NCBI GenBank assembly: GCA_903876795.1
Contig: CAIRBK010000030.1
Coordinates: 1-36,929 of the forward strand
DNA: 36,929 nucleotides
Direction of reading: 5' to 3'
Source: an uncultured Verrucomicrobiota bacterium
GTDB lineage: Bacteria > Verrucomicrobiota > Verrucomicrobiia > Opitutales > Opitutaceae
The notes under the pieces are model-generated. The model was not told the DNA's origin, made no database searches, and saw only the letters and a program-made list of their open reading frames with translations. Positions 1-5,226 of the stretch are shown here, one piece after another. Positions within the stretch are counted from its first letter, which is position 1, and the number at the start of each line of letters is the position of its first letter. The position numbers and the translations under genes are program-made.

Positions 1-168
1 GACCCACGCCTTCCCGCACTCAAACCACGTGAAATCATGATATTAAACACCTGTTAACCCACGCTTTTTGCGAGTGCACTCACGCTGGCCTCAGCAGGAT
101 GATTTAAAATCACATCTGGAAATGAAATTAGGACCTCCCTCAAACCAAACGGCGAACCCGCCCACTAC

Positions 169-1704
169 ATGGGCTATCTCGTTCTCCAATCGGAAAACGA
201 CAAAGTCTTCGACGTCATCGACGGCCAGCAGCGCCTCACCACCCTAAGTCTGATTGTTTTAGCGGTCCTAAAAAACCTTCGCCGCTTGGTCGAGACCGGC
301 AAAGACGCCGAGGCCAACAAACAACGCCAAGAGCAAATCCGACAAACCTACATAGGTTACCTCGACCCCGTCACCCTCGTCCCGCGCTGCAAGCTCAGCC
401 TCAACCGCAACAACGATAACTACTACCAAACTTACCTTGTTCCTCTTGAGGCCCTGCCCGTTCGCGGCTTCCGCGCGTCCGAGCATTCCCTGCGCAAGGC
501 CTTCGAGTGGTTTGATCGCCGCATTGCCGAGGAATACGTCAAAAACAACCCTAACCCAGGCGTCGCCTTGGCCACCTTTGTAGAAGGCATGAGCGACAAG
601 CTCTTCTTCACTGTCATCACCGTCACCAACGAGCTCAATGCTTACAAAGTTTTCGAGACCCTAAACGCACGCGGGGTGCGTCTCTCTTCGACCGATTTGC
701 TCAAAAACTACCTCTTCTCCTTGCTCCACCGCGAGGGACAACATGAGCACGAGATTAAGAACTTGGAAAACCGTTGGGAAGCCATGGTCGGCCGCCTCGG
801 CAGCGAGAGTTTTCCGGATTTTCTCCGGGTTCACTGGAACAGCCGCAACGCCTTCGTGCGCCAGACCGAACTATTCAAAACCATCCGCAACCGCATGTCC
901 TCGCGCGAGGCCGTCTTCGATCTCATCCGTCGCATGGAGCAGGATGTCGAAACCTACGTCGCTCTCACCCAGCCCGAAACCTCCGATTGGTCGCCCGAGG
1001 CCAAACAGTATGTCAAAGAGCTAAGAATGTTTAGCGTGCGCCAGCCCTTCCCCCTGCTTCTTAGCGCCAAGCGCACCCTCCCCGAGGGTTTTGTCTCCCT
1101 CCTCCGCGCCTGTTCCGTTGTATCCTTCCGTTACAACGTGATCGGTAGCCAGCCAGCCAACGAGCAAGAACGCGTCTATAATTCGGTCGCCACAAAGGTG
1201 GCCTCCGGCGAGCTAAACACCGCCTCGGCCATTATCGCAGGACTCTCAACCATCTACCCCAACGACAAATTCTTTAAAGAAGCGTTCTCCGAAAAATCCA
1301 TTCGCACCACCCAGTCCCGCAATAAACGCATCGTTCGTTATATCCTCTGCGCCCTGGAGTATAAACTCACCCAAACCGACCTCGATTTCGATAGCATCGC
1401 GTTTAATATCGAACACGTCCTCCCGGAAAATCCCGGCGCGGGCTGGGACGCCTTTTCCGAAAACGAACTCGAAGCGCTCACCTATCGGCTGGGCAACCTC
1501 GCCCTGCTCGCCAACGGCACCAATAAAGACATCGGCAACGCCCCCTTCGCCGCCAAAAAACCCGCCTACGCTACCAGCACCTTTGCCGCCACCCGCAAAC
1601 TCGCCGAGGAAAACGACGACTGGACCCCGGAGCGCCTCGCCGCCCGGCAAAACTGGATGGCGAACCAAGCCACCTCCATCTGGCGCATCGACCAACTTTC
1701 CTGA
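169..1704 (+). CDS. DUF262/DUF1524 (GmrSD-like) protein, N-terminally truncated
   Basis: DUF262 plus DUF1524 proteins include the GmrSD type IV restriction enzymes, which cut modified phage DNA; this is a family-based role. The DGQQR motif of DUF262 is at residues 18-22. The C-terminal third has the HNH-like DUF1524 pattern: IEHVLP near residue 419, then RLGNLALL, an N-rich stretch and the F-x-x-K-K-x-x-Y segment. The first ATG is already inside the domain. The same frame stays family-like upstream (NEIRTSLKPNGEPAHY, from position 121) but meets a TGA at 100-102 with no usable start codon between. The usual first 50-60 residues, with the F-x-R-x-Y-x-W motif, are absent in all three forward frames of 1-120. 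I infer a 5' deletion, so activity is doubtful. The Mod remnant begins 5 nt downstream, which suggests an original shared operon. Confidence 0.8.
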   Translation: MGYLVLQSENDKVFDVIDGQQRLTTLSLIVLAVLKNLRRLVETGKDAEANKQRQEQIRQTYIGYLDPVTLVPRCKLSLNRNNDNYYQTYLVPLEALPVRGFRASEHSLRKAFEWFDRRIAEEYVKNNPNPGVALATFVEGMSDKLFFTVITVTNELNAYKVFETLNARGVRLSSTDLLKNYLFSLLHREGQHEHEIKNLENRWEAMVGRLGSESFPDFLRVHWNSRNAFVRQTELFKTIRNRMSSREAVFDLIRRMEQDVETYVALTQPETSDWSPEAKQYVKELRMFSVRQPFPLLLSAKRTLPEGFVSLLRACSVVSFRYNVIGSQPANEQERVYNSVATKVASGELNTASAIIAGLSTIYPNDKFFKEAFSEKSIRTTQSRNKRIVRYILCALEYKLTQTDLDFDSIAFNIEHVLPENPGAGWDAFSENELEALTYRLGNLALLANGTNKDIGNAPFAAKKPAYATSTFAATRKLAEENDDWTPERLAARQNWMANQATSIWRIDQLS

Positions 1705-1709
1705 TCACC

Positions 1710-2273
1710 GTGTCCGCCAAGAAAACCAAACTCGAACTGACTTGGATTGGAAAAGAGAACCGGCCTCGGCTGGAGCCGCGCATCCTCATCCCCGACGACT
1801 CCAAATCCTACCACGCCAAGCATCGCGTTTCGGAGAATGATATTTTTGATAATCGACTCATTTTCGGCGATAACCACCTCGCGCTAAAAGCGCTGGAACA
1901 CGAGTTCGTTGGCAAAGTTAAATGCGTCTTTATTGATCCGCCCTACAACACCGGCAGCGCATTTGCCCAGTATGACGATGGTATTGAGCACTCTTTGTGG
2001 CTGTCTCTAATACGGCCTCGCATAGAACTAATTCACCGTCTGCTAAAGCCCAGCGCCTACACCGCGTCCGCCGATAGCCCACCGTTGAACTTCCGCCATT
2101 CCCCGGCCGACAAGAGCAACATGGCGAAGTATCTCTTCGGCGGTTTCACCAAGTGCCTCTATCCCGTGCAGAAATTCCAATCCGACTCCGAGCGGAAGCT
2201 CGCAGTCATCTTGGAGCGCGAGGCAGTCAAATGGTTCAAGCCCGCGAAGGGACAGTTCCAGATCCAGAAATAA
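1710..2273 (+). pseudogene. Type III restriction-modification remnant: Mod N-terminus fused to a Res fragment
   Basis: This open frame of 187 residues is a chimera. Residues 1 to about 113 match the start of a type III DNA methyltransferase (Mod): KLELTWIGKENRPRLEPR, then the FDNRLIFGDN segment, then the catalytic DPPYNTGSAF motif near residues 76-85. Just after LIHRLLKP the methyltransferase pattern stops. The frame continues as a late piece of the restriction/helicase subunit (Res): NFRHSPADKSN, KYLFGGF, CLYPVQKF, SDSERKLAVILE and KWFKPAKGQFQI. It ends before the Res PD-(D/E)XK nuclease motif. Most of Mod, including the AdoMet-binding motif and target recognition region, is gone, as are the helicase and nuclease parts of Res. 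It cannot methylate or cut DNA in the usual way. The junction is near 2050. The gene starts 5 nt after the DUF262 stop. Confidence 0.8.
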
Positions 2274-2290
2274 GCCTGCTTAACCCGTCG

Positions 2291-3139
2291 ATGGGGGACT
2301 ACGTGATCGCGAGATACGCAAAAGAACCACAGGAGGTGGCCGGTATTATAATTAACATAGGTTCGGTTCCTGCGCTGGTGAAGTTGCGGTCGATGAACGG
2401 CTCGGCAATTGTTAGTCCTCGCTTCTACAGCGAGGCCTGCACGCTGTTGGCGAACTATTACTCATCAACACCCGTCGATATAAAGTTGAAGATTAAGCTG
2501 GCATCAATGATTGCTAATATAAAGTCGCCCAGTGCCTCGTGCTTGGCGTTCGCGGATACAATCACCGCAGACATACCGCGAGTCGCCGCTCCGGTCTTAT
2601 CGCAAAAATCATTTCATTCCGACTTAATCGATTTAATTGAATATGGCTACAACCGAGAGATATTCAATGAAGAATCTTCCGATGCCGAAGGCTTCCTTTT
2701 CGAGCTGGCAGGAAAAAGACTGAGTATTGATGATCAGCGATCCCTTTCTGCGGTGCTCGACCTACAGCCAATTGGAAATAAGGAAGAACTTATTACTGCC
2801 TTCCGAGCGTCGGTTGTATCCATGCTTTCAGGTGAAATCGACTCACTTGTTGAAGATCGTGGAGTGATTGAGGACGTGATCGATTCCGAGAATCTTGGAG
2901 ACGCACGTAAAGATGTTCGTCGATTCGTAGACGGATTTTTCGACGACTACTATATCGAGTTCACTCAATCCGATGTGGAAGAAGTCGCAGACTCGTGCGA
3001 CGTTAGCGGAATCATTTCACGTAACCGTGAGGCGCACGAAGAATGGTCTCGAACAAGGAATGAGCCGAGGATAAATCTGGCTGTTCACGACGACGCCTTT
3101 ATCGACGAGTTGTTCCGCTCCGACTTTCCTCCTATTTGA
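2291..3139 (+). CDS. Hypothetical protein, possible C-terminal remnant of a STAND-type NTPase
   Basis: No catalytic motif is visible in these 282 residues. The same frame reads ISLLNPS directly before the ATG, giving a continuous NPSMGDYV segment. This resembles the NPS-x-x-DF motif that follows the NTPase part of novel STAND (nSTAND3-like) proteins. The acidic end (DDAFIDELF) would also suit the C-terminus of such a protein. I therefore suspect a gene that lost its N-terminal nuclease and NTPase domains, joined to the Res fragment around 2270-2276. The assignment rests on short motifs only and could be wrong. Base composition is clearly poorer in G+C than the flagellar region. No ribosome binding site is evident before 2291. 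It ends 38 nt before the GHKL gene. Confidence 0.5.
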   Translation: MGDYVIARYAKEPQEVAGIIINIGSVPALVKLRSMNGSAIVSPRFYSEACTLLANYYSSTPVDIKLKIKLASMIANIKSPSASCLAFADTITADIPRVAAPVLSQKSFHSDLIDLIEYGYNREIFNEESSDAEGFLFELAGKRLSIDDQRSLSAVLDLQPIGNKEELITAFRASVVSMLSGEIDSLVEDRGVIEDVIDSENLGDARKDVRRFVDGFFDDYYIEFTQSDVEEVADSCDVSGIISRNREAHEEWSRTRNEPRINLAVHDDAFIDELFRSDFPPI

Positions 3140-3177
3140 TTGGGTAGTCATATCTCCAACGACCACACCATTTATCC

Positions 3178-5226
3178 ATGGCCACCAAAATCCCCGTCAA
3201 CCTCTCGATAGACTACCTCAAGTCAATCACGGTAACGAGCCGTCCTCTTTTGGCGTTGTCGGAGGTGATTTGGAATGGGCTCGATGCGGATGCGCAGCGC
3301 GTATCCATACGTTTTGATCGCAACAAGCTGGACACGGTGGAGGCCATTCGGGTGATCGATGATGGTTCTGGCATCGACTACGATCATGCAGGAGTCTTGT
3401 TCGGCACGCTCGGTGACAGTTGGAAGAAGACCAAGAATCGAACGACCGGCGGCCGTGGCTTGCACGGCAAGAACGGCAAGGGTCGTTTCCGCGCGTTCAG
3501 TTTGGGTAGTCGCATCACTTGGGCGACGATTTCCCATCGCGAGGGCACTGTCCTGATCTCATATCGCATCGCAGGCACAACAACGGCGTTAAAGGATTTC
3601 GACGTGAGCGATCCGGTGCCCATGAAAAATGGGGCCAAGCCAGGCACGGAAGTGTTGATCGAAAACCTGCACAAGGAGTTTGGCTCACTTACTCACTCTG
3701 ATGCGGCTCTCGATGTTACGCGGGAATTCGCGAGCTATTTGGCGAAACATCCCAACGTGGTCATCGACTACGATGGCGTGGTTCTCGACCCACGCAGTGT
3801 GCAGATTTGCGCTGCTGATTTACCTTGTGCCGAGGTGACGCTTTCCAACGGCACGACGACAACGCCCATGGTGCGGGTAGTCGAATGGAAGACCAAGGTC
3901 GAACGCAGCCTTCATCTTTGCGACGAGACAGGCGTGTCGTTTCATGAGGTGAAACTGGGAACAGGAGTGCGCGCACCGGGGTTCAATTTCACGGCCTATC
4001 TTCTTTGCGACGTCATTCGCGAAATGGATAAGGACAACAAACTCATACTTGAAGATCTCCATCCTGACATCGAAGCACTCGTCGATACCGCGAAAAAGAC
4101 GCTGAAGGGGTATTTTCGGAAGCGAGAAGCCGAAGACCTTTCCAAGGCGGTCGCCCGCTGGAAAGCGGAGAAAATTTACCCCTACGAGGAAAAACCCGAT
4201 CTGACTCCCGTCGAAGAGGCGGAGCGCCAGGTGTTCGATATCGTGGCGATCAACGTTCAGGAATACTTGCCAGATTTCGAAGAATCCGCGCAGTCGTCGA
4301 AACGCTTCACGTTTCGCCTCCTTTCTCAGGCCATAAAAGACAATCCTGAGTCGCTGCAAAAAATCATCGGCGAGGTATTGGCCCTCAAAACAGATGCGCA
4401 AAACGATTTGGCGGAATTGCTCGAACGAACGCCGCTAGCTGCGATCATTCACGCGGCAAAAATCGTCACTAACAGGCTCGATTTCGTGAAGGGCATAGAG
4501 GATCTGCTCTTCGACAAGGACACCAAGAAGGTGCTGCTTGAGCGAGATCAGCTCCACAAAATCCTCGAAAACGAAGCGTGGATTTTCAGCGAAGAGTTCG
4601 CTCTGGCGGGCAGCGAAAAGACACTCGAAGAGGTTTTGAATCTTCACCTCGATAAGTTGGGGAAGCGAGAAGATGATCCCGATCCCGTCGAAGTGGGCGA
4701 CGGCAAGCGTGGTCGGGTGGATCTTATGTTTCACAAGGCAGTGCAGCCCCGGACAGGAGAATTTGATTACATGGTCGTGGAGTTGAAACGGCCGTCGCAG
4801 AAGATTAATGACGAGGTCCTGGCCCAGGTAAAAAAATACGCCTACGCAGTTGCCCGCGATCCACGGTTTCACGGTGTTCCGATTCGCTGGACCTTCGTGG
4901 CGGTCTCAAACGAGTTGGACGACTTTGCCCAGCGGGAGGCCAATCAGCGAAACCGTCCCAGGGGGCTAGTCTCGGATGATTCTGAATTTCATATCCGTGT
5001 TTGGGCCAAGACGTGGTCTGAAATCTTCAATGATGCTCGGTCGAGGCTGCGCTTTTTCAAGGATCAGCTCGCCTATGAGGCCGACCGCGACAGCGCGCGG
5101 GCTTACCTCAAGGCCAAGCACGACAAGTTTCTGCCAACGCCCGAGCAGGTGGAGGCTGTGGGGAAACAAACGGAAAAGAATGACGCCCAGGAGACTTCTA
5201 CCGCGAAAACTGCACCAACCTCGTGA
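3178..5226 (+). CDS. GHKL ATPase fused to a Shedu/DUF4263-like PD-(D/E)XK nuclease domain
   Basis: This 682-residue protein appears complete. The N-terminus is a GHKL (Hsp90/MutL/MORC-type) ATPase: N-box E29-x3-N33-x2-D36-A, the DDGSGI box at 61-66, and the glycine-rich lid GGRGLHGKNGKGR at 91-103. A charged helical middle region (about 300-480) follows. The C-terminal part has a nuclease-like core with D515 (RVDLMF) and E535-L-K537 (VVELKRPS), then a QVKKYAYAV helix and a hydrophobic strand. This is the order seen in DUF4263/Shedu nucleases. GHKL ATPases of the MutL/MORC type are known in restriction-modification and other defence operons. I infer an ATP-controlled DNA-cleaving defence protein. 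It shows no damage, unlike the three genes before it, and whether it acts alone is unknown. Confidence 0.8.
   Translation: MATKIPVNLSIDYLKSITVTSRPLLALSEVIWNGLDADAQRVSIRFDRNKLDTVEAIRVIDDGSGIDYDHAGVLFGTLGDSWKKTKNRTTGGRGLHGKNGKGRFRAFSLGSRITWATISHREGTVLISYRIAGTTTALKDFDVSDPVPMKNGAKPGTEVLIENLHKEFGSLTHSDAALDVTREFASYLAKHPNVVIDYDGVVLDPRSVQICAADLPCAEVTLSNGTTTTPMVRVVEWKTKVERSLHLCDETGVSFHEVKLGTGVRAPGFNFTAYLLCDVIREMDKDNKLILEDLHPDIEALVDTAKKTLKGYFRKREAEDLSKAVARWKAEKIYPYEEKPDLTPVEEAERQVFDIVAINVQEYLPDFEESAQSSKRFTFRLLSQAIKDNPESLQKIIGEVLALKTDAQNDLAELLERTPLAAIIHAAKIVTNRLDFVKGIEDLLFDKDTKKVLLERDQLHKILENEAWIFSEEFALAGSEKTLEEVLNLHLDKLGKREDDPDPVEVGDGKRGRVDLMFHKAVQPRTGEFDYMVVELKRPSQKINDEVLAQVKKYAYAVARDPRFHGVPIRWTFVAVSNELDDFAQREANQRNRPRGLVSDDSEFHIRVWAKTWSEIFNDARSRLRFFKDQLAYEADRDSARAYLKAKHDKFLPTPEQVEAVGKQTEKNDAQETSTAKTAPTS

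What the first reader, a model, noticed from the sequence alone, without database searches (positions are those of the whole stretch)
3178..5226. Intact GHKL ATPase-Shedu-like nuclease fusion as a candidate defence system
The sequence shows a GHKL ATP site (N33, D36, DDGSGI, glycine-rich lid) and a D515...E535-x-K537 nuclease-like core in one 682-residue protein, the only undamaged gene of the defence island. GHKL proteins of the MutL/MORC type are known in restriction systems, and DUF4263/Shedu nucleases are known antiphage enzymes. Their fusion in one chain suggests an ATP-gated nuclease that may act alone.
Basis: partly seen in the sequence, partly recalled or inferred. Interest (0 to 1): 0.65.

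Follow-up and report, generated by a model that had tools for sequence, protein, structure and literature searches.

The report
GHKL ATPase fused to Shedu-like nuclease
The gene encodes an intact one-protein DNA-cutting machine, a molecular-clamp ATPase joined to a nuclease; a related protein of the same design is already known to protect bacteria from phages, so this is a well-supported new example rather than a new kind of system.

Summary
Window 3178-5226 (+) is an intact 682-residue ORF. Residues 8-320 fold like a MORC-type GHKL+S5 ATPase (model pLDDT 88.7; MORC3 Z 20.7). Residues 432-660 fold as a PD-(D/E)XK nuclease; best solved match is the Bacillus cereus Shedu nuclease (Z 9.0, tied with nickase N.BspD6I), and four Shedu entries are in the top ten. 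ATPase residues E29, N33, D36, D61, G63 and nuclease residues E455, D515, E535, K537, Q550 are identical in 101 of 101 full-length relatives. A profile links the C-terminus to canonical Shedu (probability 90.5), not to HsdR (0.3). But Pfam SduA_C/DUF4263 hits 0 of 66 family members.

The architecture is not new: paraMORC3 (Iyer 2008), and VcSduA, a GHKL-DUF4263 fusion proven to restrict phages alone (PMC12137116). This lineage is probably a sister of VcSduA. Where examined, relatives lie mostly in restriction/defence operons, plasmids and prophages; the upstream defence genes in the window are remnants. Verdict: new member of a known kind; most likely an ATP-gated phage-restricting nuclease.

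The parts
3178..5226 (+). GHKL ATPase - Shedu-like PD-(D/E)XK nuclease fusion, 682 aa, intact
3199..4137 (+). GHKL + S5 ATPase module, residues 8-320 (motif I E29/N33/D36; motif II D61/G63/G65; lid H96/G97/G100/G102/R103; motif IV near G156)
   Evidence: HATPase_c_3 E=1.4e-14; MORC3 5ix2 Z 20.7, rmsd 3.7, 282 aligned; named residues 101 of 101 except G65 100 and G156 99
4138..4467 (+). helical middle region, residues 321-430 (possible clamp/linker; function inferred)
   Evidence: secondary structure of the model
4471..5157 (+). PD-(D/E)XK nuclease domain, residues 432-660: E455, D515, E535-x-K537, Q550, Y554, W613
   Evidence: own AlphaFold2 model pLDDT 85.3; 8ti9 Shedu Z 9.0, 8ps4 7.8, 8ps5 7.6, 8ti8 7.5; hhalign to canonical Shedu prob 90.5; residues 101 of 101
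169..1704 (+). GmrSD/DUF262-type type IV restriction gene lacking about 60 N-terminal residues (context, not part of the fusion)
   Evidence: HEC-06 60-568 of 569 E=3.7e-207; GmrSD_N 43-199 of 199, GmrSD_C 2-137 of 138; in-frame stops in bases 1-168
1710..2273 (+). remnant: N-terminus of a type III methyltransferase joined to the C-terminus of a type III restriction subunit (context)
   Evidence: MTase_III 3-113 of 575 E=1.3e-53; REase_III 695-779 of 871 E=2.5e-11
2153..3139 (+). remnant: C-terminal part of a PDC-S73 candidate defence protein (context)
   Evidence: PDC-S73 469-750 of 752 E=8e-26

Best explanation
It is a one-protein anti-phage nuclease of the paraMORC3 / GHKL-Shedu kind. Two chains meet through the GHKL ATPase heads; ATP binding closes the heads and the helical middle region around DNA; closure on a phage-specific DNA state (most plausibly free ends or replication/recombination intermediates, as reported for E. 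coli SduA) licenses the C-terminal E-D-ExK site to nick or cut it; ATP hydrolysis through E29 reopens the clamp. Shown here: intact ORF, both active sites conserved, predicted folds, Shedu affinity of the nuclease by profile, foreign base composition, defence context of many relatives. Inferred: dimerisation, DNA trigger, ATP gating and phage restriction (in print VcSduA protects, needs E27 and K557, and is modelled as a dimer).
For: Intact 682-aa ORF. E29, N33, D36, D61, G63 and E455, D515, E535, K537, Q550 identical in 101 of 101 full-length relatives. Folds: eleven MORC2/3/4 entries lead for 8-320; the C-terminal model's best match is the B. cereus Shedu nuclease domain and four Shedu entries are in the top ten. 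Profile link to 11 canonical Shedu proteins prob 90.5, E 1.3e-6, with E455/D515/E535/K537/Q550 facing Shedu E221/D260/E274/K276/Q305; control profile of 7 HsdR N-termini prob 0.3. A PADLOC SduA model hits 10 of 66 family members, best 9e-7. Context: of 33 close same-strand neighbours in 52 non-redundant genome loci, 23 were scanned and 17 match restriction, defence or candidate-defence models, against 0 of 10 chromosomal genes of the window. GC 54.2% against 59.3-73.0% in 117 equal-sized windows of the rest. In print: VcSduA(E27A) and VcSduA(K557A) both lose protection (PMC12137116, passages); E. coli SduA senses DNA ends (PMC12904381, passages).
Against: Pfam SduA_C (PF14082) hits 0 of 66 family members, this protein included, at E<=0.01. 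Foldseek finds no PDB match of the nuclease at E<=0.001; MspJI leads at 8.7e-3 and E. coli SduA is eleventh at 0.25. Shedu's Z 9.0 is tied with N.BspD6I 8.2. Foldseek ranks human TRAP1 (Hsp90) first for the whole model, MORC3 eighth. The HsdR control profile is thin (7 sequences, two identical) and does not match canonical Shedu either (prob 0.5). Catalytic spacing E-to-K is 496-511 in 102 of 112 sequences that show both residues, against 530 in VcSduA by its printed numbers, so the one tested protein is probably not of the same subfamily. I found no experiment on this protein or its subfamily (searches).
Confidence: 0.75

Rival explanations
1. It is the restriction half of a sequence-specific restriction-modification system (BbrUII/HgiDII-like): the GHKL-nuclease cuts at a recognition site and a methyltransferase protects the host.
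For: The NCBIfam BbrUII/HgiDII model hits it, E=1.4e-17, best stretch 27-201, with a second stretch whose place is not shown, far below the cut-off (63.5 of 550 bits). One PADLOC REase_II model hits 36 of 66 family members. Other GHKL-nuclease fusions sit next to cytosine-5 methyltransferase genes in 6 of 8 plasmid loci read; one of them (L155) passes the BbrUII cut-off (753 bits) and five more match most of the model below it (L150-L153, L157). In this protein's own family a cluster holding the type I methylase HsdM lies within three ORFs in 6 of 52 loci, and a dcm gene is two genes away in L159.
Against: A methyltransferase is not a constant partner in this family (6 of 52 for the largest such cluster; others were not sought). 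The window has only a truncated type III methyltransferase remnant beside the gene. The family score is far from the BbrUII cut-off.
Confidence: 0.1
2. It is an accessory or back-up nuclease of a restriction operon that needs the partner system (type I, type III, Hma) for targeting.
For: Relatives lie between hsdS and hsdR (L003/L026), overlapping a type ISP gene (L160), next to HmaC (L023), McrC (L088), GajA (L039), GmrSD (L081). Here it follows remains of a type III system. Auxiliary nucleases including Shedu in BREX and related systems are described in print (PMC12839542, passage).
Against: The partners differ from locus to locus and 27 of 52 loci show no same-strand neighbour within 60 bases (some are cut by contig ends). 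Iyer 2008 notes a stand-alone subset of paraMORC3. VcSduA protects alone.
Confidence: 0.1
3. It is a leftover gene with no current role in this host, carried in a decayed island.
For: The three upstream genes are truncated or fused; the patch 1-5226 is 49-57% GC in a 68% GC contig.
Against: This ORF is intact with the catalytic residues kept.
Confidence: 0.05

Closest known systems
paraMORC3 (Iyer, Abhiman, Aravind 2008, PMC2292703)
   Same: N-terminal GHKL + S5 domains with a C-terminal restriction-endonuclease-fold domain bearing E-D-ExK; scattered distribution; both restriction-linked and stand-alone genes
   Different: No difference found in the parts I read; its alignment figure could not be read, so identity with its exact subfamily is not proven
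VcSduA, Shedu type I-D (PMC12137116)
   Same: One protein, GHKL ATPase then PD-(D/E)XK nuclease of Shedu type; catalytic Glu in motif I and nuclease lysine
   Different: Catalytic spacing 530 against 508 here and 496-511 in this family; VcSduA is reported to carry DUF4263, whereas SduA_C does not hit this family
Canonical Shedu SduA (PDB 8ps4/8ps5 E. coli, 8ti8/8ti9 B. cereus)
   Same: Nuclease core by profile (prob 90.5) and, in a tie, by fold (Z 7.5-9.0), including E-D-ExK-Q register
   Different: Other N-terminal domains instead of GHKL (PMC12409362 and PMC12904381, passages)
BbrUII/HgiDII-type restriction enzymes with GHKL heads (NCBIfam NF050001)
   Same: GHKL head plus C-terminal nuclease in one chain
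   Different: Score far below the family cut-off (63.5 of 550 bits), whereas L155 beside a cytosine methyltransferase scores 753; this gene has only a methyltransferase remnant beside it
MORC and MutL ATPases
   Same: ATPase-S5 fold, MORC3 Z 20.7
   Different: No PD-(D/E)XK domain of this kind at the C-terminus (recalled, not tested)

Membership tests
paraMORC3 (GHKL-S5-REase fold) | N-terminal GHKL domain with the conserved motifs followed by an S5 domain | tested here: met
paraMORC3 (GHKL-S5-REase fold) | C-terminal restriction-endonuclease-fold domain with E-D-ExK | tested here: met
   E455, D515, E535-x-K537 in 101 of 101; PD-(D/E)XK fold
Shedu (SduA) | Direct match to Pfam SduA_C/DUF4263 | tested here: not met
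   0 of 66 family members at E<=0.01; none in own genome at E<=0.001
Shedu (SduA) | Shedu-type PD-(D/E)XK core recognisable by sensitive profile comparison, and not equally like another nuclease family | tested here: met
   hhalign prob 90.5 to 11 canonical Shedu proteins; 0.3 to 7 HsdR N-termini; PADLOC SduA model in 10 of 66. Only one control family was compared, with a thin profile
Shedu (SduA) | Fold of the solved Shedu nuclease domain | tested here: inconclusive
   Best match 8ti9 Z 9.0 (143 aligned, 3.5 A) but N.BspD6I 8.2 is within 1
Shedu type I-D / VcSduA | Same subfamily as VcSduA | tested here: inconclusive
Shedu type I-D / VcSduA | Anti-phage activity dependent on ATPase and nuclease residues | not testable with these tools
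   needs bench work
BbrUII/HgiDII type II restriction enzyme | Score above the NCBIfam equivalog cut-off | tested here: not met
   63.5 bits of 550; L155, of another lineage, gives 753
BbrUII/HgiDII type II restriction enzyme | Intact cognate methyltransferase next to the gene | tested here: not met
   only a truncated type III methyltransferase remnant upstream within the window; the contig ends at base 1 and an unlinked one was not sought
MutL mismatch repair protein | MutL equivalog score | tested here: not met
   24.3 bits of 180

The most novel reading that the evidence does not exclude
This subfamily (W-N-x-x-D N-box, short catalytic spacing, no SduA_C match) is a separate GHKL-nuclease clade from VcSduA that acts as a swap-in back-up nuclease inside type I, ISP, Hma and other restriction operons, triggered when phage anti-restriction or stalled restriction leaves DNA ends, with the ATPase clamp reading DNA topology rather than sequence.
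Probability: 0.12. Interest if true: 0.5.

Novelty: new member of a known kind. Interest (0 to 1): 0.28.

Why it matters
It adds an example, probably from Verrucomicrobiae, to the GHKL-headed Shedu-type nucleases and shows that this family escapes the Pfam SduA_C model, so tools that rely on that model may under-count such systems. It offers an intact, compact protein with clear catalytic residues for testing how a GHKL clamp controls a nuclease, a mechanistic question that the VcSduA study leaves as a hypothesis.

Tried and rejected
A single-sequence search of genome contigs found no relative; the alignment-based one found 122, of which 80 were kept. Single-sequence Pfam, PADLOC and NCBIfam searches do not name the nuclease; HSDR_N_2 and PDDEXK_9 hits are weak and below cut-off, and an HsdR profile does not match. 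A solved-structure sequence search with the whole-family profile lists only ATPases among its best 60 of 78. Foldseek of the whole model lists ATPases in its 50 rows; the nuclease alone gives no E<=0.001. Single canonical Shedu sequences give little (prob 6.9 and 1.2); two other GHKL fusions with weak SduA_C matches give 96.5 and 95.1. A viral-contig scan with a canonical Shedu protein found none. I looked for VcSduA's residue numbers (E27, K557): no lysine at 557 among the relatives, and none among 13 further GHKL fusions, though the motif patterns failed in 5 of these 13. MutL was rejected by score. The neighbour scan covered 23 of 33 close neighbours: 19 by PADLOC at 1e-12 and 4 by Pfam only; the 10 left out are 96-186 aa long. 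Genes in flanks were called by a simple longest-ORF script. Repeats near the gene were unremarkable.

Papers: PMC2292703, parts 1-2 of 4 and passages; PMC12137116, PMC12904381, PMC12409362 and PMC12839542, passages; others only in search listings; Gu 2025 and Loeff 2025 known here only as cited (Gu's id was tried and is not held). Searches for prior art.

Full report
OBSERVATION. Window 3178-5226 (+) is an uninterrupted ATG-started ORF of 682 residues and the only match of its kind in its genome at E<=0.001. HATPase_c_3 matches residues 26-123 at E=1.4e-14.

RELATIVES. An alignment-based scan of bacterial and archaeal genomes found 122 relatives among 204 pattern matches, 80 kept, and 31 of 113 in viral contigs; plasmids gave 46 records and phages 2. 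By record titles they range over Verrucomicrobia, Proteobacteria, Bacteroidetes, Planctomycetes, Actinobacteria, Cyanobacteria and others. Of the 111 loci, 101 have an ORF of at least 600 aa; the other 10 were left out of residue counts. In 101 of 101, E29, W32, N33, D36, D61, G63, S81, K83, H96, G97, G100, G102, R103 and E455, W468, D515, E535, K537, Q550, Y554, W613 are identical; G65 is 100 of 101 and G156 99. In a sample of 286 genomes of the same class, all 36 matching genomes are listed (many by a MutL-like stretch only) and none but the window's own belongs to its family; 20 other genomes of that family are listed without a match. So the gene is patchy. One class member (L004) has exactly the record coordinates of L071, an uncultured Verrucomicrobiae bacterium, so the window's class is very probably the same. 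L003 and L026 are the same locus to judge by identical HsdS scores and 100% identity, and L002 and L023 may be; the 52-locus context count uses only L021-L100.

FOLD. With 66 sequences the full model has mean pLDDT 88.7. Realigned by VIA-align, residues 8-320 match MORC3 (5ix2, Z 20.7, rmsd 3.7, 282 aligned), MORC2 and MORC4 in the first eleven rows, then TRAP1/Hsp90 and MutL; Foldseek's own order puts TRAP1 first and MORC3 eighth. The C-terminal part modelled alone has mean pLDDT 85.3. Its best match is the B. cereus Shedu nuclease domain 8ti9 (Z 9.0, 143 aligned, 3.5 A); E. coli SduA 8ps4/8ps5 (7.8, 7.6) and 8ti8 (7.5) are also in the top ten, mixed with N.BspD6I (8.2) and R.BspD6I2 (7.5). 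So the nuclease superfamily is well supported by fold, and Shedu is the leading but not the sole candidate by fold alone. Foldseek by itself was weak: MspJI first at 8.7e-3, E. coli SduA eleventh at 0.25.

PROFILE LINK. Against a profile of 11 canonical Shedu proteins the nuclease domain scores probability 90.5, E 1.3e-6, with E455/D515/E535/K537/Q550 in register with E221/D260/E274/K276/Q305. Against 7 HsdR N-termini (two identical; L132's member chosen by eye) it scores 0.3; canonical Shedu scores 0.5 against the same thin profile. PADLOC's SduA model PDLC00401 hits 10 of 66 members, best 9e-7. Pfam SduA_C hits 0 of 66 at E<=0.01 and nothing in the window's genome. In 288 genomes of the phylum SduA_C matched in 7 (5 above cut-off); three of its loci (L137-L139, 21-27 bits) are themselves GHKL fusions of other lineages, and the two compared (L138, L139) match our nuclease profile at 96.5 and 95.1. 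L139 lies in the sampled genome of the window's genus.

CONTEXT IN THE WINDOW. The gene lies in an AT-richer patch (54.2% GC; 117 equal windows of 5876-36929 range 59.3-73.0%). Upstream are a GmrSD-type gene lacking its N-terminus, a type III Mod-Res remnant (methyltransferase 3-113 joined to restriction subunit 695-779) and the C-terminal part (469-750 of 752) of a PDC-S73 protein. Downstream, 10 genes tested have no PADLOC match at 1e-5. The contig starts at base 1, so the island's other side is unknown. No tRNA lies in the window. Three other HATPase_c_3 ORFs lie elsewhere in the genome and were not identified further.

CONTEXT OF RELATIVES. In 52 genome loci non-redundant at 80% identity, 25 have a same-strand neighbour within 60 bases (33 of 96 immediate neighbours). 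Within three ORFs on either side the largest shared cluster, which holds HsdS, is in 7 of 52 loci, one holding HsdM in 6, one holding HsdR in 4 (names). Of the 33 close neighbours 23 were scanned; 17 match restriction, defence or candidate-defence models (HsdS, HsdR, HsdM, HmaC, GajA, a GajB-like helicase that may be generic, a ThsA/PDC-S25-like protein, GmrSD, McrC, two further PDC models), and 6 do not. Named plasmids show the gene overlapping a type ISP restriction gene, beside a LlaMI-type restriction system and the antiviral reverse transcriptase Drt2, or alone amid conjugation genes; a temperate phage of Pasteurella carries it. What was examined is defence and mobile-element context, not housekeeping; loci without close neighbours were not characterised.

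WHAT IS KNOWN. Iyer et al. 2008 (PMC2292703) defined paraMORC3: GHKL + S5 + C-terminal restriction-endonuclease-fold domain with E-D-ExK, partly in restriction operons, partly stand-alone. PMC12137116 shows that VcSduA of V. cholerae, GHKL then DUF4263 nuclease, protects alone in E. coli against Drexlerviridae and in its host against phage X29, that E27A and K557A abolish protection, and that it is placed in Shedu type I-D. The E-to-K distance there is 530; here it is 508 and in the family 496-511 (102 of 112 sequences), so the two are likely sister lineages within one architecture. Other GHKL-nuclease fusions stand next to cytosine methyltransferases in 6 of 8 plasmid loci; one passes the NCBIfam BbrUII/HgiDII cut-off (L155, 753 bits) and five more match most of that model at 176-315 bits, whereas our protein gives 63.5. 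GHKL-headed nucleases are thus an established and broad kind.

VERDICT. Observation confirmed; interpretation supported; novelty limited to a new member (of a subfamily that the Pfam Shedu model misses). Mechanism as stated in Best explanation, confidence 0.75 for a phage-restricting ATP-controlled nuclease; the DNA signal it senses remains inferred. On rechecking I corrected the residue counts, the methyltransferase statement for relatives and the BbrUII comparison; the odds did not need to change.

Noticed in passing
window 1710-2273: One 187-residue ORF reads from a type III methyltransferase N-terminus (model positions 3-113) straight into the C-terminus of a type III restriction subunit (695-779), as if mod and res were joined by an internal deletion.
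   Followed up: partly
L139 181-1947 (sampled genome of the window's own genus): A second, only distantly related GHKL-SduA_C fusion (589 aa, 22% identity to this protein) in a close relative of the host.
   Followed up: partly
L150, L151, L152, L153, L155, L157: Other GHKL-nuclease fusions stand next to cytosine-5 methyltransferase genes in 6 of 8 plasmid loci read, with a Vsr endonuclease gene in L155 and L157; L155 passes the BbrUII/HgiDII cut-off: probable type II restriction-modification systems with a GHKL-headed restriction enzyme.
   Followed up: partly
L132 847-2046 and L140 501-1727: Canonical Shedu genes lie between an hsdS-like and an hsdR-like ORF (L132, neighbours read by eye) and just before a BREX pglZ gene (L140), parallel to the GHKL fusion between hsdS and hsdR in L003/L026.
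   Followed up: partly
L154 3911-7316: A Rhizobium plasmid has a GHKL ATPase gene directly followed by a separate gene annotated as a Shedu nuclease; the pair was not tested further.
   Followed up: no
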